Origin: a virus
DNA: 64,000 nucleotides
IMG/VR virus record: IMGVR_UViG_3300018914_000001
Location: 94,515-158,514 of that record
Strand: one strand, 5' to 3'
Shown: in pieces, positions 2,817 through 36,747 of the stretch
Numbering within the stretch: position 1 is the first letter of the stretch
Layout of the letters: every line of letters starts with the position of its first letter
Program-made: the position numbers and the translations under genes
Notes under the pieces: model-generated
Seen by the model: the letters and a program-made list of their open reading frames with translations, nothing else
What the model was told of the DNA's origin: nothing
Databases searched by the model: none

Positions 2817-5051
2817 TTGTCTAAGAAAGAGGAATTGATTCGTCTAGACGTACAAATTATTAGAGACACTTTCATGACACATGATGGAAGTGGTTACGCC
2901 GTTTATGAGGTGGAGGTTTTTAATATTGGAGATATTTTGCCTAAAGATGAACTTCCTTTCTACGGCAGTTCGTTTGTGACGAAAGTAAAGGGAAATTTTG
3001 AAAAAAAATTCCACGCTGGCGAAGAGTACAGCATGTATTGTGTCCTTGAAGACCATCCAAGATACGGAAAGCAGTACAAAGTGCAAATTGTTCAGGCGAA
3101 ATTTGATACTGTTGCCAGTGCTAAGGCTTTTCTTATGGAATTTTGTGAGCCTTCTATTGTCAATCAATTAATCGAACACTATGGCGCTGGTGTTATCGAA
3201 AAGATTCTCAACAAAGAAGTGGATACAAATTACATTAAGGGAATGGGCAGTCATCGCTTCAATCTTTTGTATGAGAAAGTAAAAGAAAATGAATATATGA
3301 AGGATATTATTATAGAACTTGGAGAGTTTGGCATTACACCACTTCAGATGAAGAAAGCTGTCGCACTCTTTGGGGCAAACGCAGTTCAGCGTATCAAAGA
3401 AAATCCTTATGAACTGTGTAAGATTAGTGGCATTGGTTTCTTAAAAGCTGATGAAATTGCACAAGGTATGGGGTTCGATATGAAAAGCCCTTTTCGTGTA
3501 AAAGAATGTATTAAATACGTTCTTATGCAAAACAGCAAAGACGGACATTCTTGGATGGAGAGGGACGAAGTAATACAAGGTGTCCAAGATAATACTCGTC
3601 TTTCTAGAGCGGATGTTGAAAAACATGCCTTCGATATCGAAGGAGTTGTTGAACTTCATGATGGTGACGGAGGCAACGAACGCTTTGCTTTAGAGAAAGC
3701 CTTTAAAGCAGAGAAGTTCATTGCCGAAACATTGCTCAAAATGCGCGACTCTAGTACTGAGCTAGATTATGATGCAGATGCTTTTATCGAAGAGCAGATG
3801 AAGAAGTACAACATCACTCTTACAGATGAACAGAAGCAGATTTTCTACAACCTTAAAAAGAATAGAGTGAACTTTCTTGTGGGGTACGCTGGTTGTGGGA
3901 AATCTTTTTTGCAAAAAATGATCTTGAATCTAATGGATAAAATGAAAAAGCATGTTCTTTTATTGGCTCCTACAGGTAAAGCCGCTAAGGTGATGGAAGG
4001 ATACACTGGTAGAGATGCATCAACAATTCATCGTGCGGTTGGATACATTGAAGGATTCGATGAGGTTAAAGATATCATTGCTGACTTTATCATTCTTGAC
4101 GAGGCATCTATGGCTGACATTTATATTTTGAGAATGCTTTTTAAAGCATTAAAGAATCCAAATGTCCGTATTTTGATCGTTGGTGACGACTTCCAAATTC
4201 CATCTGTAGGAGTAGGGAATTTCTTGCATGACTGCATCGAAAGTAATGCATTTTTGGTTACTAAGCTCACAAAGGTATTCCGTCAAGAAGATGGGGGTAT
4301 CCTTGATATCGCAACCAAAACACGTTTGAAGCAAAAATTTATCAGTACCAATTTCCTTGGCAAAGCAGAGTTTGGCTCTGATACCGTTATCTGGTGTGTT
4401 CCACAAGAGAAAATGGTAAATGGTTATACGTACTGCTACAAGCAAGCCTTGGAAGCTGGATATAAAGTGGATGATATTATCATCCTATCACCGCGCAAAG
4501 CAGGAGAGCTTGGGACAGAGGCTGTTAACAAAACTATCCAGTCTATTGTAAACCCTCCAGCAGACAACAAACGAGAAGTCAATTTTCACAATGTTATCTT
4601 TAGAGAAGGTGACAGAGTTATTAATATCAAAAATAACTACAAAGCTTTGATTCACTACAAACTTCTCAAAGGGGCAGACGAAGAAGAGTGCACGACTGTT
4701 GTTTATAATGGTGATACTGGCGTAATTGTCGAAATTAACGACATAGAGAAATATATCCTCATCGACTATGGCTTCGATATTATCAGAACGTATTACATCC
4801 AGCTTGAAACTATACTTCATTCGTATTGCCTTACCATTCATAAATCACAAGGCTCTGGATTTAGTGCGGTCATTGTGCTTGCTGACAAAGCTCACAAATG
4901 GCAATTAAACGCAAATCTTCTTTACACTGCTTGGACTCGTGCAAAGAAATTCTTGCGTGGTTTATGTCAGGCAGATGTAATTAACTCCGCGATGAGGAAA
5001 AACGTCAATCTCACACGTAATACATTCCTTTGTGAATTTTTGAAAAATTAG
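2817..5051 (+). CDS. recD2: RecD-like (RecD2/TraA-type) SF1 DNA helicase
   Basis: The start is placed at the TTG at 2817, directly behind AAGGAGGAGG; an upstream in-frame ATG at 2703 has no ribosome site and precedes the promoter. The 744-residue product has an N-terminal OB-like region, helix-hairpin-helix-like segments (IKGMGSHR, KISGIGFLKADE), then a helicase core: Walker A GYAGCGKS (about residue 355), Walker B LDEAS (about 424), GDDFQIPSVG, and a C-terminal motif IHKSQGSGF with AWTRAKK (about 670-700). RecD2 proteins are 5'-3' helicases in recombination and repair without RecBC partners; a phage copy likely serves replication or recombination. It is transcribed alone from its own promoter. 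Confidence 0.88.
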   Translation: MSKKEELIRLDVQIIRDTFMTHDGSGYAVYEVEVFNIGDILPKDELPFYGSSFVTKVKGNFEKKFHAGEEYSMYCVLEDHPRYGKQYKVQIVQAKFDTVASAKAFLMEFCEPSIVNQLIEHYGAGVIEKILNKEVDTNYIKGMGSHRFNLLYEKVKENEYMKDIIIELGEFGITPLQMKKAVALFGANAVQRIKENPYELCKISGIGFLKADEIAQGMGFDMKSPFRVKECIKYVLMQNSKDGHSWMERDEVIQGVQDNTRLSRADVEKHAFDIEGVVELHDGDGGNERFALEKAFKAEKFIAETLLKMRDSSTELDYDADAFIEEQMKKYNITLTDEQKQIFYNLKKNRVNFLVGYAGCGKSFLQKMILNLMDKMKKHVLLLAPTGKAAKVMEGYTGRDASTIHRAVGYIEGFDEVKDIIADFIILDEASMADIYILRMLFKALKNPNVRILIVGDDFQIPSVGVGNFLHDCIESNAFLVTKLTKVFRQEDGGILDIATKTRLKQKFISTNFLGKAEFGSDTVIWCVPQEKMVNGYTYCYKQALEAGYKVDDIIILSPRKAGELGTEAVNKTIQSIVNPPADNKREVNFHNVIFREGDRVINIKNNYKALIHYKLLKGADEEECTTVVYNGDTGVIVEINDIEKYILIDYGFDIIRTYYIQLETILHSYCLTIHKSQGSGFSAVIVLADKAHKWQLNANLLYTAWTRAKKFLRGLCQADVINSAMRKNVNLTRNTFLCEFLKN

Positions 5052-8989: not shown

Positions 8990-9074
8990 GGGTGAGCGGT
9001 AACGATGGCGAGTTACGGTGGACTGTAAATCCATTGCTTAGGCTTAGGGGGTTCGAATCCCTCCTCACCCACCA
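8990..9074 (+). tRNA. tRNA-Tyr (GTA)
   Basis: Acceptor GGGTGAG/CTCACCC, anticodon loop CTGTAAA, long variable arm as normal for bacterial tRNA-Tyr, TTCGAAT loop, and encoded ACCA end. Confidence 0.95.
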
Positions 9075-9079
9075 ATTAT

Positions 9080-9154
9080 TGAGCATTCTGTATAATGGGA
9101 GTACGCCATCCTTACAAGTTGGAGGCGGGGGTTCAATTCCCTCATGCTCAACCA
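9080..9154 (+). tRNA. tRNA-Val (TAC)
   Basis: Acceptor TGAGCAT/ATGCTCA, anticodon loop CTTACAA, TTCAATT loop, encoded ACCA. The anticodon stem (CCATC/GTTGG) has a T-T mismatch at 30-40. Confidence 0.88.
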
Positions 9155-9170
9155 TGCTCAACCATACTCA
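9144..9170 (+). repeat. Tandem duplication of the tRNA-Val 3' end
   Basis: The 10-mer ATGCTCAACC at 9144-9153 recurs at 9154-9163 and again partly as ATACTCA. The first copy is the 3' acceptor strand of tRNA-Val; the others are outside the tRNA and look like a duplication or recombination scar. Confidence 0.7.
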
Positions 9171-9226
9171 GTGTCAAATACTCGAAGTGAGGGACATGGT
9201 GTTTAGCATCCTCCCACCTGACACTG
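9169..9226 (+). ncRNA. Structured spacer RNA 1 (candidate)
   Basis: CAGTGTCA (9169-9176) pairs perfectly with TGACACTG (9219-9226) and encloses 42 nt with further imperfect pairing (GTGAGGGA near 9187 with TCCTCCCAC near 9209). It sits exactly between tRNA-Val and tRNA-Ala. Confidence 0.4.
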
Positions 9227-9232
9227 ATAAAT

Positions 9233-9308
9233 GGGGCGTTAGTTCATCTGGTAGAACGTTGCATTTGCACTGCAAAGGTGAGCGGTTCGAGTCCGCTACG
9301 CTCCACCA
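9233..9308 (+). tRNA. tRNA-Ala (TGC)
   Basis: Acceptor GGGGCGT/ACGCTCC with one wobble, anticodon stem TTGCA/TGCAA around TTTGCAC, TTCGAGT loop and ACCA end. Confidence 0.93.
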
Positions 9309-9312
9309 ATAA

Positions 9313-9385
9313 CCACATCTGGCTCAGGCAACAGAGCAAAAGTCGATGGTAGCTCTAGCTGATGGTTCGATTCCATCAATGTGGT
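9313..9385 (+). ncRNA. tRNA-like element with a degenerate anticodon arm
   Basis: The 73-nt element has an acceptor stem (CCACATC/AATGTGG, last pair mismatched), a good D arm (GCTC, loop AGGCAACA, GAGC) and a good T arm (GATGG TTCGATT CCATC), with exactly tRNA spacing. The anticodon position (AAAGT, CGATGGT, AGCTC) cannot form a stem and lacks T33. No CCA is encoded (TTA follows). It may be a decayed tRNA or a tRNA-shaped RNA with another use. Confidence 0.6.
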
Positions 9386-9389
9386 TTAT

Positions 9390-9464
9390 GGCTCTCTAGC
9401 TGAGATGGATTAGCATTCGCCTGAAAAGCGAAGGAGATTGGATCGTTACCAATGGGAGCCACCA
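9390..9464 (+). tRNA. tRNA-Phe (GAA)
   Basis: Acceptor GGCTCTC/GGGAGCC, anticodon stem TTCGC/GCGAA around CTGAAAA, T arm ATTGG/CCAAT with an unusual ATCGTTA loop in place of TTCRANT, and ACCA end. Confidence 0.88.
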
Positions 9465-9492
9465 CAAATCTCGAAAAATTTTAGTTAACATG

Positions 9493-9526
9493 TTGACAAT
9501 TAGACCGAGATATGGTAATATATAGT
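9493..9526 (+). promoter_or_regulatory. Second, internal promoter of the tRNA array
   Basis: TTGACA (9493-9498), 17-bp spacer, TAATAT (9516-9521), then TATAGTCAAGAGGT (9521-9534) as at the first promoter. Confidence 0.7.
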
Positions 9527-9545
9527 CAAGAGGTTAACAAATAAT

Positions 9546-9619
9546 GGCTTATTGGTATATGGGTAACATACTCGCCTGTCACGCGAGAGTAACGAGTTCG
9601 AGCCTCGTATAAGCCGCCA
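9546..9619 (+). tRNA. tRNA-Asp (GTC)
   Basis: Acceptor GGCTTAT/ATAAGCC, anticodon stem CTCGC/GCGAG around CTGTCAC, discriminator G, encoded CCA. Confidence 0.95.
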
Positions 9620-9621
9620 AT

Positions 9622-9696
9622 GGTTCTTTAACTCAGAGGTAGAGTACACGACTGATAATCGTGCGGTCAATGGTTCGAATCCATTAGGAACCACCA
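9622..9696 (+). tRNA. tRNA-Ile (GAT)
   Basis: Acceptor GGTTCTT/AGGAACC, anticodon stem CACGA/TCGTG around CTGATAA, TTCGAAT loop, ACCA end. Confidence 0.95.
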
Positions 9697-9699
9697 AAA

Positions 9700-9752
9700 G
9701 CTATTTACATCATACAGCGAGTGCGCATTAGCTAGATAGAAGTGTAAATAGC
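9700..9752 (+). ncRNA. Structured spacer RNA 2 (candidate)
   Basis: A perfect 10-bp closing stem, GCTATTTACA (9700-9709) with TGTAAATAGC (9743-9752), encloses 33 nt that begin with CATACAGCGA. The motif ATACAGC directly inside the stem is shared with spacers 3 and 4. It lies between tRNA-Ile and tRNA-Asn. Confidence 0.45.
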
Positions 9753-9760
9753 CTCAACAT

Positions 9761-9836
9761 TACAGGGTAGCTCAGCAGGTAGAGCGCGTGACTGTTAATC
9801 ACGTGGTCGTGGGTTCGAATCCCGCTCCTGTAGCCA
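9761..9836 (+). tRNA. tRNA-Asn (GTT)
   Basis: Acceptor TACAGGG/TCCTGTA, anticodon stem CGTGA/TCACG around CTGTTAA, TTCGAAT loop, discriminator G, encoded CCA. Confidence 0.95.
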
Positions 9837-9839
9837 TAT

Positions 9840-9914
9840 GGCGCATTCTTCTATGGGTTAGGAATCCTGCCTTTCAAGCAGGGAAAACGAGTTCGAGTCT
9901 CGTATGCGCTACCA
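9840..9914 (+). tRNA. tRNA-Glu (TTC)
   Basis: Acceptor GGCGCAT/ATGCGCT with a terminal G-T pair, anticodon stem CCTGC/GCAGG around CTTTCAA, ACCA end. Confidence 0.93.
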
Positions 9915-9920
9915 AATTAT

Positions 9921-9995
9921 TGGGGAGTAGCCAAATGGAACGGCAACAGGTTTTGATCCTGTCATTCGTGAGTTCGATTCTCACCTCCCTTGCCA
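9921..9995 (+). tRNA. tRNA-Gln (TTG)
   Basis: Anticodon stem ACAGG/CCTGT around TTTTGAT, T arm GTGAG/CTCAC, discriminator G and CCA. Positions 1 and 72 are T-T instead of a pair, consistent with the weak first pair favoured in tRNA-Gln. Confidence 0.9.
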
Positions 9996-10031
9996 AATTT
10001 TATCTAGTATATAAGGGGGCGATAAATAAAC

Positions 10032-10151
10032 ATGATTTTTAAAGAATATTCAAATCCTCAAGCTACTGGTTGGAAAGGTTGGATTGAAAACTCTCAGGGT
10101 ACAACAATTGGCTTCGTTAAGCTAACTGGTGAAATTATCTTTAACTGGTAG
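10032..10151 (+). CDS. Small ORF inside the tRNA array, 39 residues
   Basis: ATG at 10032, with AAGGGGG about 12 nt upstream, opens 39 codons ending in TAG. The product begins MIFKEYSNPQATGWKGWIE and is rich in Trp and Gly with a C-terminal beta pattern (TIGFVKLTGEIIFNW). It sits between tRNA-Gln and tRNA-His on the same transcript. No family is recognised; it may be a short regulator or an unrelated small protein. Confidence 0.5.
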   Translation: MIFKEYSNPQATGWKGWIENSQGTTIGFVKLTGEIIFNW

Positions 10152-10164
10152 ATGGCATAAATAT

Positions 10165-10252
10165 GGTGGGTATGGCGAAATGGAAAACGCGACAGGCTGT
10201 GAACCTGTTGAGGATGTACCTCTTGTGGGTTCGAGTCCCACTATTCACCCCA
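10165..10252 (+). tRNA. tRNA-His (GTG) with a long variable arm
   Basis: Anticodon stem ACAGG/CCTGT around CTGTGAA. The acceptor (GTGGGTA/TATTCAC) is preceded by G-1 (10165), which pairs with C73, the histidine identity element. The variable region is 16 nt and folds as GAGG ATGTA CCTC, a class II arm that tRNA-His does not normally have. The D-arm and the sequence around the arm recall tRNA-Leu. CCA is encoded. Confidence 0.85.
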
Positions 10253-10262
10253 AAATATTAAT

Positions 10263-10339
10263 GGGCGATTGATGGAATTGGCATACATATGCGCCTTAGA
10301 AGCGTAGTTTTAGGAGTTCGACTCTCCTATCGCCCACCA
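10263..10339 (+). tRNA. tRNA-Leu (TAG) with a short variable arm
   Basis: Acceptor GGGCGAT/ATCGCCC, anticodon stem TGCGC/GCGTA around CTTAGAA, T arm AGGAG/CTCCT, ACCA end. The variable region is only GTTTT (5 nt), whereas tRNA-Leu normally has a long class II arm. The D-loop GGAATTGG is Leu-like. Confidence 0.83.
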
Positions 10340-10346
10340 ACCTTTT

Positions 10347-10423
10347 TAGACGCTTACAGCAAATCATAAATCTTACGCTATTCAAATAATTGGTGATTAA
10401 TATTAAAATGATTGGCGCGTCTA
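10347..10423 (+). ncRNA. Structured spacer RNA 3 (candidate)
   Basis: TAGACGC (10347-10353) pairs with GCGTCTA (10417-10423); an inner stem pairs AATCAT with ATGATT. TTACAGCAA follows the outer 5' strand, as in spacers 2 and 4. It lies between tRNA-Leu and spacer 4. Confidence 0.4.
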
Positions 10424-10428
10424 GAATT

Positions 10429-10525
10429 TAGGCACATACAGCAACCTACAATTATCTAAAAGATAAAATTATTAACTTACATTGATGAATGCTGTTTGCT
10501 TCACACTTTTAAATTGCTGTGCCTA
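10429..10525 (+). ncRNA. Structured spacer RNA 4 (candidate)
   Basis: TAGGCA plus CAGCAA (10429-10444, with a 4-nt CATA bulge) pairs with TTGCTGTGCCTA (10514-10525), closing about 70 nt that contain a small TTATC/GATAA hairpin. It carries the CATACAGCAA motif. No ORF is seen in this stretch. Confidence 0.42.
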
Positions 10526-10534
10526 GTTAATTAT

Positions 10535-10610
10535 TGCGGAGAGGACAAATGGTAAGTCGCCTGACTCATTATCAGGAAATAGTTGGTTCGATTCCAACCT
10601 CGCGCAACCA
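10535..10610 (+). tRNA. tRNA with CAT anticodon (Met, or Ile after lysidine change)
   Basis: Anticodon stem CCTGA/TCAGG around CTCATTA, T arm GTTGG/CCAAC, discriminator A and CCA. The acceptor TGCGGAG pairs with CTCgCGCA only if one G on the 3' strand is bulged. Initiator, elongator and Ile2 identity cannot be separated here. Confidence 0.82.
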
Positions 10611-10611
10611 T

Positions 10612-10700
10612 ATGGGTATAGTTCCGTAGCTTGGTAGCGGTCTTGCTTTGGACGCAAGTGGCGCAAGCCCTCGTAGGTTCGAATCCTACTGCCCATACCA
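10612..10700 (+). tRNA. tRNA-Pro (TGG) with an extra variable arm
   Basis: Acceptor ATGGGTA/TGCCCAT, anticodon stem CTTGC/GCAAG around TTTGGAC, T arm GTAGG/CCTAC, ACCA end. A 14-nt variable region contains GGC GCAA GCC, a mini hairpin with a GNRA loop, and the D arm is 3-4 nt longer than usual. Confidence 0.83.
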
Positions 10701-10703
10701 TAT

Positions 10704-10779
10704 GCTGGAGTAGCACAATTGGCAGTGCAGTCGCCTTGTAAGCGAAAGGTTGCGAGTTCAAGTCTTGTCTCCAGCACCA
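10704..10779 (+). tRNA. tRNA-Thr (TGT)
   Basis: Acceptor GCTGGAG/CTCCAGC, anticodon loop CTTGTAA on a GTCGC/GCGAA stem, TTCAAGT loop, ACCA end. Confidence 0.92.
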
Positions 10780-25255: not shown

Positions 25256-25684
25256 ATGAAATTAAAAAATCATGAAATTAATGGATTTGTACAATTTCTT
25301 ATGAGACTTGACTTGGAAGGCAAAGAATCGCGAATGAGAACTCGACTTGTTAAGATTCTTGTAGAGAGAATGCAAATGATAGAAGAAGAGCGTATTCAGA
25401 TGGTTCAAAAATACGCTGAAAAAAATGAAGATGGAACACCAATTATTGTTACAAATGAAGATGGAGGCAGTGCCTATCAAGTTTCTGATATGGGTGCGTT
25501 TGCCAATGAGTATGCAGTTCTAATGAACGAAGACTGCATAATTGACAACAATGAAGAGCGAAAAGACATGCTTTTAACTGTCAAAGATGCTGTGTTGAAT
25601 ACAAAGATTAAATTTAGTGGTCAGGATGCATTTGACTATGATCGTTATTGTGACATTGTGGAGACAGTTAATTACGCTGAGTAG
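25256..25684 (+). CDS. DUF1617-like protein, 142 residues
   Basis: Start at ATG 25256 behind AGAAGGAG; a GTG at 25247 overlaps the ribosome site. The pattern (KLKNHEINGFVQFLMRLDLE, GKESRMRTRLVKIL, then EEERIQMVQKYAEKNEDGTP) closely follows the DUF1617 family of Gram-positive siphophages, which are encoded next to tail genes and have no known function. It is mainly helical. The neighbour downstream is the tape measure gene. Confidence 0.65.
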   Translation: MKLKNHEINGFVQFLMRLDLEGKESRMRTRLVKILVERMQMIEEERIQMVQKYAEKNEDGTPIIVTNEDGGSAYQVSDMGAFANEYAVLMNEDCIIDNNEERKDMLLTVKDAVLNTKIKFSGQDAFDYDRYCDIVETVNYAE

Positions 25685-25740
25685 TATGGAGTGCAGATTT
25701 TGTCACTCCAAATATAAATGCAAAAGGGGAGTGACGAATC

Positions 25741-28700
25741 GTGGCTAAAAAACCATTAGGTATTTTAATTCAAGCAAAAGTTAATGTTTCTGATATAGAT
25801 AATCAAATTAAGCAAATTCAAGATAGATTAAAAGAAATTGACTTGACAATTAAAATGGATAAAGAAGTCCTAAACACACTAAGGCAATTCAACAAGGTTA
25901 TTGGTGATCTAGATAAAGCAACAGTTACAGCTATGGCTAATATGAGTCGAGCTGGGAAGAGTGTAAATCAGATCATTCAAGGCGCTAATGTAGAAACAAA
26001 AAAATTACTCCGTCAATGGGATGAAGTAAGTAAAATTTCCGATAGCTTTGATGGAGATAAGAATTTCACTGGTAGAAAAGAAAGAAGAATTAACAAAAAT
26101 AGAATTGTAGAAACTACATATGACGCTGAAATGAAGCCAACTGGATATAGGGTTACTCAAAACCTAGAGCAGATTAAACGAAAACAAGCCGAATTTGAGC
26201 AATATAGCAAGGCGTGGACTAAACGAATCAATGACGCTGTTAGTATGGGGTTAATTAACGACGTGACTGCTCTAAAAATTCGCAAAAGATTAGAGAAAAT
26301 TAGCCCTACTTCTATTGCATATAGCTCCAACAAAAAGGACTTTGAATCAGAATTTAAAAATGTTACTGATATGGGCAAGATTCATGCTCAGGCTATAAAA
26401 GAAAATCAGAAGTTTGAAAAAGCTCGCATGGATGCTATTCAAAAAGAAGCTATTGAGCAAAACAAGCTATTCAATCAAAAGAAAAAACAGCAAGAAGAGT
26501 TGGATAAAGCTCATTATACGGCAATCCAAGAGAATGCAAAACGAGAACAAAAGATCATGGAGAGTCTTCATAAAGAAGCTCTAAAAATGAATGCGGAAAT
26601 TGACAAGCAAAAGTTTCTACAAAATAAGAAGATTGCAGATTTGGCTGGGGTTGACTATAACAGAGATGAAGCTATTAGACAGCGCATTGCTGATGAACTA
26701 AACAAGAAGCATGACCTAACAGGCAAAAAGGCTATTGATTCGAATAGTGTCTCTTTAGAACGTGTATGGGACTCTAAAACACAACAAGAGATGATCCGCT
26801 ACAATGCAGTCATGAATGATGGAAGTAAGCTTGTTACAAATTACAAGGGTAGTATTGATAGGCTAACTAACTCCATGTATCAGAATGGCTCTGTAGTAAG
26901 AAACAACACTCAGGCGCAGATGGGCTTTTTTGAAAGTCTAGGGACAGCCATGCAGAAAATCCCTGTGTGGATGGCTGGTATGACTATCTTCTATCAAACC
27001 TTACATTTCTTTACAGATGGCATCGCCTATGTAAATGAACTAAACAAGTCTTTAACTGAAATCTCTATTGTAACAGGGCAATCTCAGGCTGGTGTAGAGA
27101 AGCTAGGTCAACAATATGCTGATCTTGCTGGAGAGATGCGCGTCACAACTTTAGAGTTAACAAAAAGCGCAACGGAATTTTATCGTCAAGGTTTAAATCA
27201 AGAACAAGTTGCAGAAAGGCTAAGGACAACAACTCAGTACGCCAAAATTTCTGCTATGGATGTCAAGGAGGCAACTGAAATCCTGACGGCTACTGTCAAT
27301 TCTATGAATATCTCTATTGAACATGCTTCTGATGTCTTTTCTTATTTGGGCGATGCAACTGCAACTGGCGCTGATGAGATTGGTAGAGCATTCCAAAAAG
27401 TTGGTGGTACTGCTGGTGCGCTTGGAATCGAATTTGAGAAGGTAGCTTCATGGATTGCAGTTATTTCTTCCAAAACACGTGAATCTGCCGAAACAATTGG
27501 TAACTCTGTAAAATCTATCATTGCACGTATCCAAAATATGAAAGAGCAAGGGTTTGATTCAGAGGATGGAACTGACGTTAACATGGTATCAAAAGCGCTT
27601 GGTGCTGTAGGCATTCAGCTAATGGACGCAGAGGGCAACTTTAGAAACTTTGGTCAAGTAATGGACGAGCTTGGTGCTAAATGGGTAACTCTAAGCAATA
27701 GAGAAAAAGCATATCTTGCAACTACTGTGGCTGGTTCATATCAACAAGCACGTTTCCTGAATATCATGGAAGGTTACGCTGAGTCTGTTGACTTGTACAA
27801 ACAATCTCTTGAGGCGGCTGGTACAACGCAAAGCAAATATAATTTGTGGCTACAAGGTACTGAAGCTCACCTAAATGCGCTGAAAACAGCAGGTCAGAAT
27901 GTATGGCATGATACATTTAACTCTCAGGGTATTCGCAACGCGATTGACCTACTGACAGTTCTTGTTAATATTATTGACGATATGATTAACATGTTTGGTG
28001 CAATTCCTATGTTTGTAATTCCTGCAACATTGGCAATTTTCAAATTCAGCGAAACTGCAAAAACAGGTTTGATTTGGTTTAATGCTATGATGGCATCAAC
28101 TGTCCAAGGCCAAGTATCTATTGCCGCGTTAACATTGGGCTTCCAAAAATTAGGATTAGGCGCTAAAGCGGCAACGTGGGCTGTTAGAGCATTTCAGGCT
28201 ACAGTTACTCTTGGACTTGCATTTGCTATTACTGCTGTGATTGAACTTATTGCTGATTTTGCTGGGAAAAGTGCTGAAGCGGAACAGCGTTTGCAAGATA
28301 TCGAAGAACGCACTAGAAATATGACTGCTACATATGCAGAGCATGGTGCAGAGATTGAAAAACTTATTCAAACTCTAGAGAAATATGAGCAGACCAACCC
28401 TAATGGAGAGGGACTTGATGCAAAAGAGTTAGAAGACTATACAAAAACAAGAGAAAGACTTATTGATCTAATGCCTCAGTTTATAGAGGGTGTAGATGAA
28501 GAAGGTAGAAAACGATTAGTTAACATTGAAGTTATGAAACAAGAAATTGAAATTCTTGAAAAATTAACAAAAATCAAGGAACAGGAAGCTTCTGCTAAAT
28601 TTAGAAATAATTTTGAAAAACGAAATGCAGAATTAGATAATGCAAAAGAAGATTTGGATAAAGCGCAAAGAGCAATTGATAAATTTAAAAACTCAGATGT

Positions 28701-31700
28701 TTACAAAAATAATCCTGATAGCGAAGGAAATCTGAGACTCGCTAACAAGCTTGAAGCTGAAAAGCTACAGGCTCTTGCAAAGTACGAAGGTCTTCTACAA
28801 CAGGCTAATGTCGATTGGAGAGATCACCTAAGAAGTCAAGCCCAAGCATTGGATGGCTATAAGAGTCTATCCAATGAAACAAAGCGTTATGTCGAAAATG
28901 TAGCCAAAGCCAATGATATTGCAAAAATTGGCAATGTAAAGGAGCTTGCTGAACAAGAAGAGAAAATGCGCAAATTAGCGCAAGCCGCTATCAATATTGA
29001 AAAAGCAATGAAGGGCGACGATACCATGAAGGTAGGGGAATCCTCATTCTGGCTTAAAAAATATGGGGATAACGCTTTTGTTGAACAAGAAAAGTTTATT
29101 ATGAATCTAAAAGATACAGCTATGCAAGCTGGCTTATCAATAGACTGGTTTAATCAAATCCTAAATAAATATATGGGCAAAACAATTGAAGCGGGTAGCA
29201 CAACTATTGACTTCAAGGGTGCTATGAATGATCTTCGTGGAGAAATGACAAAGGGAGCAGACGAAGTTAAAGACCTTAATAAAGCAATTGAAAAACAAAC
29301 AAGAGGTCAGAAATTGACTTATGATGAGGTCATTTCGTTAACAAAAGCACATCCAGAACTGCAAAAATCTTGGAAGATACTGAACGGACAAATTGTTATT
29401 TCTACTGAATCTTTATTAAAAGAGCGGGATGTAGCTCTTCAAGGGACTAGGGATAAAATCAAAGCCAAAGAAGAGGAGATGCGTCTAGGCGCACAGTTCC
29501 TTGCCCAAAAACTTGGTATGACCTTGAAAGAGGTAGAGATGATTGAGACTGTCGCTCAGGCTCAAATGAAGCTTAATGAGCTTTACGACATGGCGGTAGA
29601 TGATAACGCTGACCCAAGAGCGCAGTTGCGTCAATCTCAAATTGCTTCTTCTAGATATAGTCAATATGGAGAAAATCTAAAGGAGTATGCCGCTCTTAAA
29701 GAAAGTCTAAATGAAATGAAGTCGGCAGTAAATTCTGGATTTAATTTCGAAACATCAACAGATGATCCGTTGAAGAAAAACAGCGATAAAGTATCTGCAT
29801 TTGCAAAAGCAATTGATGATCTAAACATGAAGCTGGAGGAGTCAAAAAGAAAGCTTGCTGAATATCCAAAATCATCTCAAGAATATCGCGATGCTTTACA
29901 GGAGCAAATTGATCTACTAAAAGAAAAGCAAAGGCTAATCCAGAATGAGTTGAATAATCCAACTGACTATACATATGGAACTCGCAATGCAAGCGGTGGC
30001 ACAACCACATCTACCAGTGGCGTTAAAGGTTTACAAGGTGTTTTAGCGGGCAAGGAAAGCGCATTTGTAGCGGCTGGCAAACAGTATGGAGTAGACCCTG
30101 CTTTAATTGCGGCTATTGCTATGCATGAATCTGGCAGAGGTAGTTCAGCTTTAGCTAGGAATAATAAAAACATTGCTGGTATGACTGATTACACAGGTAA
30201 GTTTTCAGATGGTTGGATGCACTATAATACCGTCGAAGACTCTATTAACGATTTAGCACGTCAAATTTCGAAATATTATATCCAAAAAGGGCTAACTACA
30301 ATTGAGCAGATTGGTGCAAAATATGCTCCAATTGGCGCTGGAAATGATCCTAATGGACTAAACAACCATTGGGTAAGTGGGGTTAAAAAGTTTTACAACG
30401 AGGTTGCCAGCAATGGTGGAACGTATACTGTTAGCGGTAATAGCGAAGACGCTTCTGAGGCTCAGGTTTATAGTAAGCAACTTAGCTTGAAACAAGATTT
30501 GATAAAGACTAGAGAGGATATCAGTCAACTTGAACAAGATATCTTTAACTCCTTCTTGCAAGGATGGGAGGAAAAAATTCAAGATATTGATTTTATTGTC
30601 AAAAGGTCTTCTATATGGATAAACCAATATAGACAAGATTTAGAAGAGACAAGTTGGACGAACAAAGAGTCTGTGAAATCCATTAATGATGAATACAATA
30701 ATCAAATTCAATATCTGAAGAATAAACAAAAATACCTGCATGAAGAAGCAAATTATATTCGTGAAAACGGTAAGATGACTGATGAGAATATCCAAAGGCT
30801 GAAAAATCTTGGTAGCCAATGGTGGGACGTACAACAGGTTATTGACCAAACAACAAAATCTCAACGCGACTTTAATGATGAATACGAGAAGTTCAACAAA
30901 GACCTTGCGAGTAAAGAAAGGGAGTCCGCTGAAGAAGCGGCAGATAAAATTATCGAAACTTGGAAGGAAGCTATCGAAAAGAAAAGAGATTTGGAAATTA
31001 AAGCTATTGAAAAAACGCAGAAAGAGAACGAAGAAGCTCATAAAAAACGTATCGACGAACTAGATGAAGAAGCCAAAAAAATCGAAGAAACATACCAGTC
31101 TCAAATTAAAGCCATCGACAAAGAAGCTAGAGATGAAGAGTATGCTGATAAGCTGAAAAAAGCCCAAGAAGAAGTAGCGGAAATTCAAAATAAAATAAAC
31201 ATCCTCTCTATGGACAACTCTATCGAAGGTAGACAACAAATGAAAGAGTTGCAAAAACAACTAAAAGACAAGCAAAAAAACTTAGACGATCTAATCAAAG
31301 ATAGAGAGCGAGAGAATCGCAAAGAAGAGCTAGAGAATACTTACGAAACAAATAAAAAAATAAATGAATCTGAAAAGGAAAAGGCTGACAAGAAACTTGA
31401 AGAGCAAAAACGTGCTAGCGAAGAAGCGATTAAAAGAGCTGAAGATGAGGCCGAAAAATTACTGCAAAATGACCAGTATTGGGCAGATAGAAGAAAAGAA
31501 ATTCTACAAGGCAATTATACTGAAGCGATTAAAATGCTTGGTGGATATCTAACTGAGTATAAAACAAAGTTAGAAAAAGAAACAGAAGAGATTGCTAAAA
31601 TTATTGAACAAAACATTATCAAAAAGCTTCAAGATGCTATGGATATGCTACCTTCTGTGAATGGTGATACAAGAGGTAAAGGTGAGAACGTTAATTCTTT

Positions 31701-32370
31701 TGAAACATATATTAGAAATAAAATTAAATGGCTAACAGCAGATGACAGCAGTAGAACAGCGTTGAATACAGAAAACGAAAAGTTTCGTCAGCAATATGGT
31801 TACAAAGATTATACAAAGGATGAGCTTTTTAATGATCCTAAGCTTCAATGGATGGTGCAAAAGTATAGAGGAGAAGCCTTTAAAGATTATGTGCAAAACA
31901 AAGTTAGATGGATTTTAGCTAATCAAAAGGGGAATGCAGAAGAGATGTCTCGTTTGGCAACAATTAATAATAGAATGAGAGAGACATGGGGCTTCAAAGA
32001 TTATACTTTGGCAGAGTTGCAAGCAGACCCTGAACTTAAAAAGCTTATTCAACCATTCGGTTTCGAAACTGGAGGATATACTGGTACTTGGAGCGGAAAT
32101 GATGGTAGGCTTGCACTGCTACATCAAAAAGAGCTGGTTTTAAATAAAGATGACACTTCAAATATGTTAAAGATTGTCGGAATGGTAAGAGAATTTATTG
32201 GCAATGTACATAATATATCTAAATTTATTCCAGCGAACGAAACAAGCTCTTCAAACGTTACCTACAACATTACTATGCAAATTGAAAAATTGACAGGCGA
32301 TGAAAAGGGTGGCATGACAGCATTCAATAGACTTGTTAAAGAAGTAAGAAAGAAAGGAGGAGCAATTTAA
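25741..32370 (+). CDS. Tape measure protein with embedded lysozyme-like domain
   Basis: 2209 residues from GTG 25741, behind AAAAGGGGAGTGA. It sets tail length. The N-terminal 400 residues are coiled coil; residues about 410-690 hold the TP901-type tape measure core (LNKSLTEISIVTGQSQAG and following), then hydrophobic segments around 750-860 that may insert into membrane. A lysozyme/glucosaminidase-like domain (about 1435-1555: YGVDPALIAAIAMHESG, KNIAGM, YAPIGAGNDPNGLNNHW) precedes a second charged coiled coil (about 1680-1930) and a Gly-rich tail. The domain likely cuts peptidoglycan during DNA entry. By the usual 1.5 angstrom per residue, the tail would be roughly 0.3 micrometre. Confidence 0.93.
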   Translation: MAKKPLGILIQAKVNVSDIDNQIKQIQDRLKEIDLTIKMDKEVLNTLRQFNKVIGDLDKATVTAMANMSRAGKSVNQIIQGANVETKKLLRQWDEVSKISDSFDGDKNFTGRKERRINKNRIVETTYDAEMKPTGYRVTQNLEQIKRKQAEFEQYSKAWTKRINDAVSMGLINDVTALKIRKRLEKISPTSIAYSSNKKDFESEFKNVTDMGKIHAQAIKENQKFEKARMDAIQKEAIEQNKLFNQKKKQQEELDKAHYTAIQENAKREQKIMESLHKEALKMNAEIDKQKFLQNKKIADLAGVDYNRDEAIRQRIADELNKKHDLTGKKAIDSNSVSLERVWDSKTQQEMIRYNAVMNDGSKLVTNYKGSIDRLTNSMYQNGSVVRNNTQAQMGFFESLGTAMQKIPVWMAGMTIFYQTLHFFTDGIAYVNELNKSLTEISIVTGQSQAGVEKLGQQYADLAGEMRVTTLELTKSATEFYRQGLNQEQVAERLRTTTQYAKISAMDVKEATEILTATVNSMNISIEHASDVFSYLGDATATGADEIGRAFQKVGGTAGALGIEFEKVASWIAVISSKTRESAETIGNSVKSIIARIQNMKEQGFDSEDGTDVNMVSKALGAVGIQLMDAEGNFRNFGQVMDELGAKWVTLSNREKAYLATTVAGSYQQARFLNIMEGYAESVDLYKQSLEAAGTTQSKYNLWLQGTEAHLNALKTAGQNVWHDTFNSQGIRNAIDLLTVLVNIIDDMINMFGAIPMFVIPATLAIFKFSETAKTGLIWFNAMMASTVQGQVSIAALTLGFQKLGLGAKAATWAVRAFQATVTLGLAFAITAVIELIADFAGKSAEAEQRLQDIEERTRNMTATYAEHGAEIEKLIQTLEKYEQTNPNGEGLDAKELEDYTKTRERLIDLMPQFIEGVDEEGRKRLVNIEVMKQEIEILEKLTKIKEQEASAKFRNNFEKRNAELDNAKEDLDKAQRAIDKFKNSDVYKNNPDSEGNLRLANKLEAEKLQALAKYEGLLQQANVDWRDHLRSQAQALDGYKSLSNETKRYVENVAKANDIAKIGNVKELAEQEEKMRKLAQAAINIEKAMKGDDTMKVGESSFWLKKYGDNAFVEQEKFIMNLKDTAMQAGLSIDWFNQILNKYMGKTIEAGSTTIDFKGAMNDLRGEMTKGADEVKDLNKAIEKQTRGQKLTYDEVISLTKAHPELQKSWKILNGQIVISTESLLKERDVALQGTRDKIKAKEEEMRLGAQFLAQKLGMTLKEVEMIETVAQAQMKLNELYDMAVDDNADPRAQLRQSQIASSRYSQYGENLKEYAALKESLNEMKSAVNSGFNFETSTDDPLKKNSDKVSAFAKAIDDLNMKLEESKRKLAEYPKSSQEYRDALQEQIDLLKEKQRLIQNELNNPTDYTYGTRNASGGTTTSTSGVKGLQGVLAGKESAFVAAGKQYGVDPALIAAIAMHESGRGSSALARNNKNIAGMTDYTGKFSDGWMHYNTVEDSINDLARQISKYYIQKGLTTIEQIGAKYAPIGAGNDPNGLNNHWVSGVKKFYNEVASNGGTYTVSGNSEDASEAQVYSKQLSLKQDLIKTREDISQLEQDIFNSFLQGWEEKIQDIDFIVKRSSIWINQYRQDLEETSWTNKESVKSINDEYNNQIQYLKNKQKYLHEEANYIRENGKMTDENIQRLKNLGSQWWDVQQVIDQTTKSQRDFNDEYEKFNKDLASKERESAEEAADKIIETWKEAIEKKRDLEIKAIEKTQKENEEAHKKRIDELDEEAKKIEETYQSQIKAIDKEARDEEYADKLKKAQEEVAEIQNKINILSMDNSIEGRQQMKELQKQLKDKQKNLDDLIKDRERENRKEELENTYETNKKINESEKEKADKKLEEQKRASEEAIKRAEDEAEKLLQNDQYWADRRKEILQGNYTEAIKMLGGYLTEYKTKLEKETEEIAKIIEQNIIKKLQDAMDMLPSVNGDTRGKGENVNSFETYIRNKIKWLTADDSSRTALNTENEKFRQQYGYKDYTKDELFNDPKLQWMVQKYRGEAFKDYVQNKVRWILANQKGNAEEMSRLATINNRMRETWGFKDYTLAELQADPELKKLIQPFGFETGGYTGTWSGNDGRLALLHQKELVLNKDDTSNMLKIVGMVREFIGNVHNISKFIPANETSSSNVTYNITMQIEKLTGDEKGGMTAFNRLVKEVRKKGGAI

Positions 32371-33140
32371 TGAAAGAGAGCATTTCTTTTTACTATAATG
32401 GAATCTCATCTGAAGAGATGGGATTGTATAATGTAACACTAAATTCGGGACTTTACGAAGAATCATTCTTGTCAGAGCGAAAGATTGAAGAGGTTACAAT
32501 TCGCGGTAGAGAAAAGCCATATTTTCAAGGGGTGACTCGTTCACCCCTTATTCTTTCTTTATCTTTTGCTTTCAAAGATACTTATAACGAGCAAAAGATT
32601 AGAGAGGTAGCAAGATGGCTAGATCAAAATTATTATAAGCCATTTTACACAGTGGATGCTCCTAATAGAATTTGGTATTGCGTACTAAACTCCAGTCCTA
32701 AGTTATTACATAATGGCTTAAAACAAGGGTATATTGATTTAGAGTTTAGATGTGATTCACCTTATACTTATACTCCAATTGTTGAATCCGTAGTTTATGA
32801 TATGTCTGAAAATACAACTAGCGGAACAGAAATTACATTCATTAACAATGGAGATGTGAATTGTAAGCCTGAAATTTGGATTCAAAAGGTGGGAGTTGGT
32901 GATTTTTCTATTGTAAACCATACGACAGGGAAAGAGTTTAAATTTATTGGGCTTGCAGATGGGGAAGAGGTCAAAGTGAATTGTGAGAATCATATTATTA
33001 CAACTTCTCTTCCAGCTACATATCGTTACAACTCCTTTAATAATAATTATTTGGATTTTGTTAGAGGTATAAATCATCTAACGGTAAAGGGGAAGGCAAA
33101 ATTCCAATTTAGATATTACTTCAAGACATTGCAAGGGTAG
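32370..33140 (+). CDS. Distal tail protein (Dit)
   Basis: 256 residues, start behind AAAGGAGGAG, sharing one base with the tape measure stop. The N-terminal half (FYYNGISSEEMGLYNVTLNS, then GVTRSPLILSLSFAF, ARWLDQNYYKPFY) is the typical Dit/phage-tail family domain forming a hexameric ring at the tail tip; the second half is a galectin-like beta sandwich. Dit joins the tube to the Tal protein encoded next. Confidence 0.85.
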   Translation: MKESISFYYNGISSEEMGLYNVTLNSGLYEESFLSERKIEEVTIRGREKPYFQGVTRSPLILSLSFAFKDTYNEQKIREVARWLDQNYYKPFYTVDAPNRIWYCVLNSSPKLLHNGLKQGYIDLEFRCDSPYTYTPIVESVVYDMSENTTSGTEITFINNGDVNCKPEIWIQKVGVGDFSIVNHTTGKEFKFIGLADGEEVKVNCENHIITTSLPATYRYNSFNNNYLDFVRGINHLTVKGKAKFQFRYYFKTLQG

Positions 33141-33156
33141 AAAGGGTGAGTCGAAA

Positions 33157-36117
33157 ATGACTTTTATTGATATTGATTTTAACAAATCTCCAGAGAAAAT
33201 AGAGCTATTCCTAGCTAGACCTGACAAAACGATCATTGGAAAGTTGACTGAGGCTTACAGTAAAAATTTAAAATTAAAACTTGGTGGAATTCATGAATTA
33301 AACTTTAAGGTTCCGTATGAGGTAGATATTAACCACAAGTTAGTCAGAAATCCAAACGTAGATAATCTTAGAGAAAGATATTTGTTAAAAGTGCAAATTG
33401 GAAATAGTCACGAGTGGTATATTATTAATAGAGTGACTGAAGCAATGGATGACGCAGAAGATGTGAAAAGTGTTCAAGCTTTCTTGTTGGCTTATGAGCT
33501 AAGAGATAGAGTTCTTCGTAATTATAAAAATATGCCAGTAGAAGGCGAGACTAATACAACCCCAAAAAATATATTGGAAACTTTACAAGAGGTTCTATCG
33601 CTTACAGAAACAAACTGGACAATTGACACTGTTGGCGGTATCGACGCAACAATTTCTATTCTTTATAGATCATTTGAAGTATCATCACAAACAGTTTTGA
33701 ACTTTATTTTTGATGTTGCAGAGAAAGTTAAAGGTTTGATTGTTTGGGATACAGAGAATCGTAAAATATTCATTAAGGATGCAGGTAAGAATTTAGAAAA
33801 TATAGGTGTTAATAGAGGTTTGAGGATAAGCTATGGTCATTATCTGAAGACCTTAAACAAAGAGAGCGATGCAGATGAAATGGTTACAAGACTAAAAGTA
33901 TTTGGCGGTGAGGATATTTCCATCCAAGAACATAACCCCACTGGTCAAAATTACTTGGAGGACTTTTCTTACTTCCTATTTCCGTTTGCTAGAGATGCTA
34001 ATAGAAATGTCATCAGTCATTCTTATTACATGTCTGATGACCTGTCCCATGCGATCTTAGATTACAAAGATAAGATAAATTCTATTACTGGACAATTTAA
34101 TGATCTGCTAAGTCAAAAGAGTACGCTTCAAGCACAATTGTTAGCCTTACAAACAAACACTACAAATGGTTTATCAAAACTTGAAACTGACCTAGCCATT
34201 ATTCAGGATAACATTGATACGATTAATGCTACCAGAATAGCCTACGAGTCAAGCAGAACATACACTAAAGGCGCACTTGTTTACTACAATGAGGCAGGGT
34301 ATATTGCAAAAGGAGTAACAACAGGCAACAGCCCAACAAATTCAACATATTGGGATAAACTTTCGACATTGAAAACAAATAAACAGACAGAAATTGATGC
34401 GAAAAAAGTGGAGATAAACAACAAACAGCAACAGATTAATGGTATCTCTCAACAAATCGTAGCGCTTCAAGAAACAGTTAAAGTTGAAAATAATTTCACC
34501 CAAGCACAGATAGCAGAAAGAAATAATTTTATCATTGAAAAAGAATGGACTGATACAGCTTATACCAACTCCAAGGATTTATATGAGTCTGCCTTGAAGA
34601 AATTTGAAGAACTAAAAAAGCCGCAAGTAGTATTCTCTATTGATATTGTAGACTTTAGGCAAATCGTAGAATGCCAAAATGATTGGACTAAGCTAGTGCT
34701 AGGCGATACAATCACTATTACCTATGATAGAATGGGCGTTGACATTGAAGCTAAAATTATTGAAATTGAAACAAACGAAGATGATGCAAGCGTAAAGCTT
34801 ACTATTGCTAACATAAAGGATTTAGAGACAAATGAGGAAAAAATAATCAAACTGCTTTACGGCTCTATCTCTACATCTACTACTGTTGATATGAACAAGT
34901 TAAAATGGGATGGCATTGACAACGTTAACAATCAAGTCAGCCAAATTTTAAATAATGCTTGGGATGCTAATAAGCGAACAATTATGGCTGGCATCAATGA
35001 AGCTGTGTCAATCTCCCCAAGAGGGATAACAATTCAAGACCCTAATGATCCTTTGAAATATGTTGTTATGCAACATGGCATTATAGCATTAACAAAAGAT
35101 GGAGGGAATACATGGAAACATGCAATGACTCCAGATGGAATTGTGGGAGAGAGGATAATTGGAACGATTATTGCTGGTCAAGACTTAACTATTGACGCGA
35201 GTGATTCAAATGGTGTAAAAACATTTAAGGTAAATTCTTCAGGAGTTGAGATAAATGGAGCAACACTAAATATTACTGGTGGTAGCAATGGTGTCTCAAT
35301 TAATTCAACAAAAGGGCTAGAGGTATTAAAAAGTGATAGCAAATCAAAAATTACTTTAAATGCTACAGATGGAATCAAAATTGAACAAAATACAGGAACT
35401 GCAAACTCTCCAGTATGGGTTAAAAAATTTTATGTTGATGCGAATGGTGATTTGATTGCCGAAAACATGACGACTAAGAATTTATTAATTCAAACAGGAG
35501 ATCCAACACCAAAGACTCTTATTGATGCAAGTACAAAAACTATTGACTTCACAGGATTTAATGTGATAAATGGAAAAGAAAGTGTACTAAAAGGTATTAA
35601 TATAAAAAACTCTTCAGGAACAACAACATTTTCTGTTGATACAAACGGCAATGTTTCAATTAGCGGTAATATCGTCATGAATGGCGGCTCCATCTCTTGG
35701 AGCAATGTAAATGCACCTTCTGCATCACAAGTTGGAGCAGTGGCGAATAACCAAACCGCAGTATTCAATACGCTGACAAATAATGGTTCTTTACAAGGTT
35801 TATTTATGTCAGGCGGGAATTTGTATATAAATGCTGACTATATTAATGGTGGAACTATCACAGGCGTTACAATTAAAACAAAACCATCTCCTTCTTGGGC
35901 TGAAATGGTGTCTGGTGGATATTTTGCTATTAAAAATTCATTCAAAACATTGTTTGAGTTAAGAGATGCATCAACAAATAGAAATATTGTTCAGCTTGAT
36001 AATACTGGAGCAGAGTTAGCGATAGGGGTTTCAGCAGGTATAGTTACAGCATTTGGTGATTGGGATTTTGCAAGCGCTAATGTAAGTGGTCTTTCAGTTC
36101 CAGCCGTATTTGGGTAA
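33157..36117 (+). CDS. Tail-associated (Tal) protein, prophage endopeptidase tail type
   Basis: The 986-residue protein follows Dit. The first 370 residues match the tail hub pattern (LFLARPDKTIIGKLTEAYSK, FVPYEVD, WYIINRV, SVQAFLLAYELRDRV). A coiled-coil region (about 300-480) is interrupted by a small beta module (SRTYTKGALVYYNEAGYIAK to STYWDKLS, about 365-405) of the carbohydrate-binding kind found again twice in the fibre at 36798. The C-terminal 300 residues are a beta-helix/fibre shaft with Asn/Gly/Thr repeats. It forms the tip and probably recognises cell wall sugars. Confidence 0.82.
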   Translation: MTFIDIDFNKSPEKIELFLARPDKTIIGKLTEAYSKNLKLKLGGIHELNFKVPYEVDINHKLVRNPNVDNLRERYLLKVQIGNSHEWYIINRVTEAMDDAEDVKSVQAFLLAYELRDRVLRNYKNMPVEGETNTTPKNILETLQEVLSLTETNWTIDTVGGIDATISILYRSFEVSSQTVLNFIFDVAEKVKGLIVWDTENRKIFIKDAGKNLENIGVNRGLRISYGHYLKTLNKESDADEMVTRLKVFGGEDISIQEHNPTGQNYLEDFSYFLFPFARDANRNVISHSYYMSDDLSHAILDYKDKINSITGQFNDLLSQKSTLQAQLLALQTNTTNGLSKLETDLAIIQDNIDTINATRIAYESSRTYTKGALVYYNEAGYIAKGVTTGNSPTNSTYWDKLSTLKTNKQTEIDAKKVEINNKQQQINGISQQIVALQETVKVENNFTQAQIAERNNFIIEKEWTDTAYTNSKDLYESALKKFEELKKPQVVFSIDIVDFRQIVECQNDWTKLVLGDTITITYDRMGVDIEAKIIEIETNEDDASVKLTIANIKDLETNEEKIIKLLYGSISTSTTVDMNKLKWDGIDNVNNQVSQILNNAWDANKRTIMAGINEAVSISPRGITIQDPNDPLKYVVMQHGIIALTKDGGNTWKHAMTPDGIVGERIIGTIIAGQDLTIDASDSNGVKTFKVNSSGVEINGATLNITGGSNGVSINSTKGLEVLKSDSKSKITLNATDGIKIEQNTGTANSPVWVKKFYVDANGDLIAENMTTKNLLIQTGDPTPKTLIDASTKTIDFTGFNVINGKESVLKGINIKNSSGTTTFSVDTNGNVSISGNIVMNGGSISWSNVNAPSASQVGAVANNQTAVFNTLTNNGSLQGLFMSGGNLYINADYINGGTITGVTIKTKPSPSWAEMVSGGYFAIKNSFKTLFELRDASTNRNIVQLDNTGAELAIGVSAGIVTAFGDWDFASANVSGLSVPAVFG

Positions 36118-36129
36118 GAGGTGATTTAG

Positions 36130-36741: not shown

Positions 36742-36747
36742 TTGGTA

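What the first reader, a model, noticed from the sequence alone, without database searches (positions are those of the whole stretch)
10165..10339. Swapped variable arms: a tRNA-His with a long arm beside a tRNA-Leu with a short arm
The tRNA with anticodon GTG has a 16-nt variable region that folds into GAGG ATGTA CCTC, while the adjacent tRNA with anticodon TAG has only 5 nt. Bacterial Leu tRNAs are class II and His tRNAs class I, so the two look exchanged. The His tRNA keeps the G-1:C73 identity pair, yet its D-loop and the bases around the arm recall tRNA-Leu; a Leu(GAG) scaffold needs one anticodon base change to read GTG. This suggests alloacceptor remodelling in a phage array. Such tRNAs might also escape host anticodon nucleases that recognise normal shapes.
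Basis: partly seen in the sequence, partly recalled or inferred. Interest (0 to 1): 0.75.

Follow-up and report, generated by a model that had tools for sequence, protein, structure and literature searches.

The report
Phage tRNAs with mismatched variable arms
A bacterial virus carries a histidine tRNA built on a leucine-type, long-armed frame beside a leucine tRNA without the usual long arm; the short-armed leucine tRNA is a common phage type, the long-armed histidine tRNA is rare, and both keep the marks their own charging enzymes read.

Summary
tRNA-His(GTG) at 10165-10252 has a 16-nt variable arm (T GAGG ATGTA CCTC TT) and a G-1:C73 pair; tRNA-Leu(TAG) at 10263-10339 has 5 nt (GTTTT). The reading as an exchange between the two is not supported. 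Short-armed tRNA-Leu is common in phages: 35 of 85 viral Leu(UAR) tRNAs sampled, and phage BF23 tRNA-Leu1, annotated as an effective amber suppressor once its anticodon is changed. None occurred in 250 Bacillota genomes. Window Leu(TAG) keeps all six elements reported for E. coli LeuRS. Long-armed His is rare (1 of 67 viral His) but recurs with G-1:C73, and is not linked to short-armed Leu. Outside the acceptor stem the window His resembles tRNA-Leu (19 of 24 nearest neighbours), so recruitment from a Leu tRNA is plausible, but a tree does not settle it. CUA and CAY codons align with Leu and His in relatives: no sign of reassignment. Best reading: phage tRNAs shed or gain the arm where the synthetase does not read it (Ser 155/155 and Tyr 70/73 stay long). 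Next to this pair lie copies of an apparently undescribed element linked to intron-containing and circularly permuted phage tRNA genes.

The parts
10165..10252 (+). tRNA-His(GTG), class II-like; G-1 at 10165, C73 at 10249, encoded CCA 10250-10252
   Evidence: His acceptor end scores 13.6 bits under both His models against -5.2 (long Leu) and -13.7 (short Leu)
10209..10224 (+). 16-nt variable arm of tRNA-His: T GAGG ATGTA CCTC TT, 4-bp stem
   Evidence: sequence; ARAGORN structure; the arm hairpin is also in the minimum-energy fold, whose remainder is not a cloverleaf
10178..10187 (+). D loop of tRNA-His with A14, A15 (pairs with U48), G18G19 and A20a as in tRNA-Leu
   Evidence: D region scores 4.1 bits as long-armed Leu, -1.1 as ordinary His
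10199..10201 (+). anticodon GTG of tRNA-His (loop CTGTGAA 10197-10203)
10263..10339 (+). tRNA-Leu(TAG), class I (short variable loop), A73, encoded CCA
   Evidence: shares 23 consecutive bases with BF23 tRNA-Leu1
10307..10311 (+). 5-nt variable loop GTTTT of tRNA-Leu
10275..10285 (+). D loop GAATTGGCATA of tRNA-Leu with A14, A15, G18G19, A20a (LeuRS elements)
   Evidence: D region scores 11.8 bits as long-armed Leu
8990..10779 (+). tRNA array holding the pair (15 tRNA genes: 14 by ARAGORN plus Val(TAC) at 9080-9151 found by Rfam)

Best explanation
Two working phage tRNAs that decode their normal codons. In phage tRNAs the variable arm is free to change wherever the charging enzyme does not read it. 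Leu(TAG) lost the arm but kept everything LeuRS is reported to need (A73, A14, A15-U48, G18G19, A20a), so it should be charged with leucine and read CUA. His(GTG) sits on a class II core with a folded long arm but carries the histidine marks (G-1:C73, GUG anticodon), so it should be charged by HisRS and read CAY. The His gene probably (about 55%) descends from a tRNA-Leu body that received a His acceptor end and a GUG anticodon. Shown here: structures, identity elements, recurrence in phages, absence from 250 Bacillota genomes, lack of association between the two traits, and codon conservation. Inferred: charging, expression, and the Leu origin of His.
For: Identity elements: all six Leu elements are present in window Leu(TAG) and the phage's Leu(TAA); 84% of 101 short-armed viral Leu have all six, against 91% of long-armed Leu and 0-19% of the ten other isotype sets tested. 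A73 in 35 of 35 short-armed Leu of the UAR sample. C73 in 26 of 26 and G before position 1 in 21 of 26 long-armed viral His. Arm length tracks what the synthetase reads: Ser long 155/155, Tyr 70/73, Leu 184/306. Published work: E. coli LeuRS does not need the long arm, and variants without it stay active (PMC9976931); engineered long-armed tRNAs with G-1:C73 are charged by E. coli HisRS (PMC7590224). BF23 tRNA-Leu1 is 77 nt with GTTTT and is annotated as giving an effective amber suppressor. Codons: CTA aligns with Leu in 63 of 105 positions, as TTA (77/142) and CTT (102/189) do; CAT and CAC align with His in 38/103 and 11/27. Cell control: short-armed Leu(UAR) in 0 of 250 Bacillota genomes, long-armed in 179. 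His body resembles Leu.
Against: No charging or expression data. The isotype models are home-made, trained on ARAGORN labels. The body tree (48 columns) is unresolved, and an AU test does not reject grouping window His with ordinary His (p 0.957), so its Leu origin is not proven. On the whole molecule including the acceptor, window Leu(TAG) scores slightly higher as Ala (3.0) than as short-armed Leu (1.4), although it lacks the G3:U70 pair of tRNA-Ala (sequence).
Confidence: 0.8

Rival explanations
1. The His tRNA is a true His lineage whose variable loop grew into an arm; the Leu-like core is convergence forced by a class II arm (unpaired 13-22, larger D loop).
For: Whole-molecule scores favour His (long-armed 13.7, ordinary 10.0, long-armed Leu 0.9). 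Many other long-armed viral His have Ser-, Tyr- or own-type cores rather than Leu cores. 13-22 is paired in 84% of short-armed His but 35% of long-armed His, so the core follows the arm. AU test does not reject a clade with ordinary His.
Against: Window His also has A15-U48 and A20a, typical of Leu, and its nearest bodies are Leu; 0 of 105 ordinary His prefer a Leu body. The phage's second His is 85% identical in body to a Leu(GAG).
Confidence: 0.35
2. The changed shapes were selected because they escape host nucleases or other tRNA-targeting defences.
For: The phage carries tRNAs for all 20 amino acids, as expected if host tRNAs are lost during infection; phage tRNAs do evade such defences in published cases (PMC10264068, PMC11555353, abstracts).
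Against: PMC10264068 attributes evasion to anticodon-loop mutations and never mentions the variable loop, arm or region. Ser and Tyr arms never or hardly change, which points to synthetase constraint rather than general shape selection. Nothing here tests it.
Confidence: 0.12
3. Specific exchange: the two arms were swapped between adjacent genes or evolved as a pair.
For: Adjacent genes with opposite anomalies; the same pairing occurs again in the other array of this phage.
Against: No association across loci (13/30 against 64/152). The Leu loop GTTTT and D arm match BF23 Leu1 and other viral short-armed Leu. Short-armed Leu is far commoner than long-armed His.
Confidence: 0.03
4. Recoding: the TAG-anticodon tRNA delivers another amino acid (for example alanine), or the GTG tRNA delivers leucine or serine.
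For: Acceptor region of Leu(TAG) scores as Ala (6.0 bits); yeast mitochondria have a UAG-anticodon tRNA charged with Thr (PMC7609411).
Against: CTA aligns with Leu and CAY with His in relatives; no G3:U70; A73 with all LeuRS elements on the one, G-1:C73 on the other.
Confidence: 0.03
5. The genes are decaying or untranscribed remnants.
For: The phage's second His lacks encoded CCA and has an A-A mismatch in its acceptor stem; 9312-9386 is an odd tRNA without CCA.
Against: Both window genes have intact stems, conserved T loops, encoded CCA and Rfam scores of 55.5 and 52.6 bits.
Confidence: 0.05

Closest known systems
Short-armed tRNA-Leu of T5-like phages (BF23 tRNA-Leu1, AJ604530)
   Same: 77 nt, anticodon TAG, variable loop GTTTT, 23 identical consecutive bases through the D arm, A73; its record says that changing the anticodon to CUA gives an effective amber suppressor
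   Different: Acceptor and anticodon stems differ; host group differs (E. coli)
Ordinary bacterial tRNA-His (class I, G-1:C73)
   Same: G-1:C73, GUG anticodon, acceptor pairs GTG/CAC
   Different: Has a 16-nt folded arm and a class II, Leu-like core in place of a 4-6 nt loop
Class II tRNA-Leu of bacteria
   Same: Core of window His (A14, A15-U48, G18G19, A20a); all of these plus A73 in window Leu
   Different: Window Leu lacks the long arm; window His has C73, G-1 and anticodon GUG
Animal mitochondrial tRNA-Leu (short variable loop)
   Same: Leucine identity by A73 and A14 without a long arm (PMC9976931)
   Different: Window Leu keeps full D-T loop contacts and is a phage gene; parallel loss, not kinship
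Non-canonical His tRNAs and allo-tRNAs (Mukai and colleagues)
   Same: His identity on a long-armed scaffold works with G-1:C73 in engineered tRNAs (PMC7590224)
   Different: Window His has a normal 7-bp acceptor stem and 5-bp T stem, not 8/4 or 9/3. Their 2017 survey paper is not held and could not be read.

Membership tests
tRNA-His | G-1:C73 pair | tested here: met
   G at 10165, C at 10249
tRNA-His | GUG anticodon in a 7-nt loop with U33 | tested here: met
   CTGTGAA 10197-10203
tRNA-His | short (4-6 nt) variable loop | tested here: not met
   16 nt; among 67 viral His of the sample only one was long. A structural norm, not a charging determinant.
tRNA-His | charging by HisRS | not testable with these tools
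   no biochemical assay
tRNA-Leu | A73, A14, A15-U48, G18G19, A20a (E. coli LeuRS elements, PMC9976931) | tested here: met
   all six present in window Leu(TAG)
tRNA-Leu | long variable arm (class II) | tested here: not met
   5 nt; 101 of the 261 usable viral Leu in the held set also lack it (set enriched by Leu patterns)
tRNA-Leu | decodes leucine codons | tested here: met
   CTA aligns with Leu in 63 of 105 aligned positions; indirect
short-armed phage tRNA-Leu (BF23 Leu1 type) | TAG anticodon, 5-nt loop, Leu D arm, A73 | tested here: met
   alignment with BF23 Leu1
8/4 or 9/3 allo-tRNA | acceptor stem of 8 or 9 bp with a 4- or 3-bp T stem | tested here: not met
   window His has a 7-bp acceptor plus G-1:C73 and a 5-bp T stem GTGGG/CCCAC

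The most novel reading that the evidence does not exclude
Phages as a group have released the variable arm from its cellular rule: leucine tRNAs routinely lose it, and histidine tRNAs are recruited from leucine tRNAs with the arm kept, giving virus-specific tRNA shapes that host tRNA-targeting enzymes recognise less well.
Probability: 0.15. Interest if true: 0.65.

Novelty: new variant of a known kind. Interest (0 to 1): 0.42.

Why it matters
[quoted passage not shown] The counts here show that about four in ten sampled viral Leu(UAR) tRNAs do not, while Ser and Tyr tRNAs keep it. That is a natural test of which arms synthetases actually read, it affects isotype assignment of phage tRNAs by arm length, and it provides natural long-armed His tRNAs for work on HisRS. 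It does not overturn the genetic code or show a new mechanism.

Tried and rejected
Swap or pairing of the two traits: rejected by locus counts. Codon reassignment: no support from codon alignment. Deriving His from the neighbouring Leu: its nearest bodies are other viral Leu, not the neighbour. A tree of 125 tRNA bodies was unresolved and its AU test uninformative. Three long matches to the His pattern in Bacillota genomes were judged by their sequence to be chance matches outside tRNAs. A first scoring of the second His used a wrong anticodon position and was corrected. Rfam at E up to 5 found no family for the TAG/ACAGCAA elements in L001. The 6-of-7 acceptor test for permuted tRNAs proved too lenient (31% of controls) and was replaced by 7 of 7 plus a D arm. 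Literature: no paper on variable arms of phage-encoded tRNAs was found; Mukai et al. 2017 could not be read.

Full report
WHERE IT IS. The window is bases 94515-158514 of a 158,514-bp virus record. Its terminase is closest to Geobacillus virus E3 (70%) and Alicyclobacillus phage KKP_3916 (61%), and it carries a protein with UPF0302 and IDEAL domains, which I know from Bacilli; the host is therefore probably a member of the Bacilli (inference). The array 8990-10779 and a second array on the other strand (L001 = bases 25500-37500) together give tRNAs for all 20 amino acids, counting Val(TAC) at 9080-9151, which only Rfam found.

OBSERVATION. Confirmed base by base. His(GTG) 10165-10252 has a 16-nt variable region with a 4-bp stem, and G-1:C73. 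Leu(TAG) 10263-10339 has the loop GTTTT. The same phage has a second long-armed His(GTG) (19 nt, L001:7777-7866) and a second short-armed Leu, TAA (L001:656-732). Dinucleotide-shuffled windows gave no match to either pattern.

HOW UNUSUAL. Pattern scans of IMG/VR followed by ARAGORN: of 67 viral His tRNAs found with a length-neutral pattern, 66 have 4-6 nt and one has 17. Of 85 viral Leu(UAR) tRNAs, 35 have a 5-nt loop. In the His-selected sample, where other tRNAs are bystanders, 27 of 80 Leu were short, 0 of 36 Ser and 0 of 17 Tyr. In 250 Bacillota genomes, short-armed Leu(UAR) occurred in none and long-armed in 179; His matches there were class I except for three that by sequence are not tRNAs. 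A completed scan of 84,980 prokaryote species with a CTGTGA-loop pattern gave only two true long-armed His among the 80 loci examined: a contig stretch with 13 tRNAs (L413) and a 721-kb Aneurinibacillus plasmid with 21 tRNAs in the stretch (L435). The main contig of that Aneurinibacillus genome has five class I His genes.

LEU HALF IS A KNOWN TYPE. The nearest classical relative is BF23 tRNA-Leu1: 77 nt, GTTTT, 23 identical consecutive bases (GATTGATGGAATTGGCATACATA), and annotated as giving an effective amber suppressor after anticodon change. Cronobacter phage EspYZU15 and Bacillus phage vB_BcoS-136 also have short-armed Leu(TAG), while Bacillus phage FADO has a long-armed one. So arm length varies among phages whose terminases are related to this one.

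IDENTITY. A 2023 review (PMC9976931) lists A73, A15-U48, G18G19 and A20a for E. coli LeuRS, with A14 and the U8:A14 pair named for other systems, and says the long arm is not needed. Window Leu(TAG) and the phage's Leu(TAA) have all six tested elements; so do 84% of 101 short-armed viral Leu, against 0-19% in the ten non-Leu sets tested. His: C73 in 26 of 26 and G before position 1 in 21 of 26 long-armed viral His. Engineered long-armed tRNAs with G-1:C73 are charged by E. coli HisRS (PMC7590224). Across all held loci Ser arms are long in 155 of 155 and Tyr in 70 of 73, but Leu in 184 of 306 (Leu and His numbers there are affected by the search patterns). The simplest reading is that the arm is retained where the synthetase uses it and drifts elsewhere; that link is inferred.

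DECODING. In proteins of the window aligned with four related loci, CTA matches Leu in 63 of 105 positions, like TTA and CTT, and CAT/CAC match His more than any other residue. There is no sign of recoding.

ORIGIN OF THE HIS GENE. With isotype profiles built from 1,914 viral tRNAs, the acceptor end is His (13.6 bits), but the body without acceptor, anticodon and arm is best matched by long-armed Leu (9.0) and poorly by ordinary His (-4.7); no ordinary His (0 of 105) prefers a Leu body, and 19 of 24 nearest neighbours are Leu. The second His matches a viral Leu(GAG) at 85% of body positions and keeps its G37, although its best-scoring body model is Pro (3.8) just ahead of Leu (1.7). Other long-armed viral His have Ser-, Tyr- or own-type cores, which suggests more than one route. 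A 48-column tree does not resolve this, and the AU test does not reject grouping window His with ordinary His. I therefore put recruitment from Leu at about 55%.

NO EXCHANGE. In loci with long-armed His 13 of 30 Leu are short, in loci with short-armed His 64 of 152. The two traits are independent; their adjacency here is probably coincidence.

WHAT LIES NEXT TO IT. Directly after Leu(TAG), 10347-10424 and 10429-10526 are two copies of an element TAG-NNNN-NN-ACAGCAA ... NNNN-CTAG. In all held loci 59 of 152 TAGnnnnNNACAGCAA sites have an exact 7-nt complement within 284 nt (2.6 expected), 58 followed by G; a scrambled control motif gave 0 of 20. They sit in phage tRNA arrays. Some enclose a circularly permuted tRNA (3' half, linker, 5' half): 9 of 26 elements with a T arm pass a 7-of-7 acceptor plus D-arm test against 1.65% of control T arms. 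The same motif, with the strands in the other order, occurs inside tRNA genes as an insertion of about 50 nt: three in L001, one in L459 (Lys, after position 27) and one in L568 (Asn). The cultured phages FADO (B. subtilis) and vB_BcoS-136 carry elements and apparent permuted tRNAs. Phage tRNA introns have one precedent found here, Lak megaphages, described as enigmatic (PMC6784885); no paper on permuted phage tRNAs was found and Rfam has no matching family (L001 only). How they would be processed is unknown. This deserves its own study.

LIMITS. Sampling by patterns needs encoded CCA and fixed T-loop bases; the broad cell control covers Bacillota only; no biochemical data.

Noticed in passing
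window 10347-10424 and 10429-10526 (+): Two copies of an element TAGRCRC-NN-ACAGCAA ... GYGYCTAG beside the tRNAs. It recurs in tRNA arrays of many phage contigs (59 of 152 motif sites have the exact 7-nt complement, 2.6 expected) and has no Rfam match in the stretch tested.
   Followed up: partly
L452:6769, L467:5337, L474:10580, L500:1730; Bacillus phages FADO (L610:491) and vB_BcoS-136 (L609:1429, 1821); this phage L001:4753 (-): Circularly permuted tRNA genes (3' half, linker, 5' half) enclosed by that element; 9 of 26 elements with a T arm pass a strict test against 1.65% of controls. FADO grows on laboratory B. subtilis, so processing through a circular RNA could be tested directly.
   Followed up: partly
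L001:4112-4238, 4455-4580, 4819-4939 (-); L459:3035 (+); L568:989 (-): tRNA genes with insertions of about 50 nt that carry the same motif in the opposite strand order (hairpin with CTAG..TAG, then ACAGCAA); the two best-defined ones start TAAA after position 27 or 29. Possible small tRNA introns; Lak megaphage tRNA introns are the only precedent found (PMC6784885).
   Followed up: partly
window 10612-10700: tRNA-Pro(TGG) with a 14-nt variable arm (TGGCGCAAGCCCTC), a third class-discordant tRNA in the array; long arms also turn up in some viral Asn, Ile and Lys tRNAs.
   Followed up: no
window 9312-9386: tRNA with an 8-nt anticodon loop (CGATGGTA) and no encoded CCA; ARAGORN cannot assign it.
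   Followed up: no
window 8990-10779 and L001: The phage encodes tRNAs for all 20 amino acids, Val(TAC) at 9080-9151 being missed by ARAGORN.
   Followed up: partly
L001:5346-6857 (-); window 57980-58897 (-): A DUF2828/DUF7788 protein amid the second tRNA array and an RNA ligase in the window; possible tRNA repair or splicing factors.
   Followed up: no
L435 (Aneurinibacillus sp. Ricciae_BoGa-3, 721-kb plasmid): Plasmid stretch with 21 tRNAs including a long-armed His, while the main contig has five class I His genes; may be a phage-like replicon.
   Followed up: no
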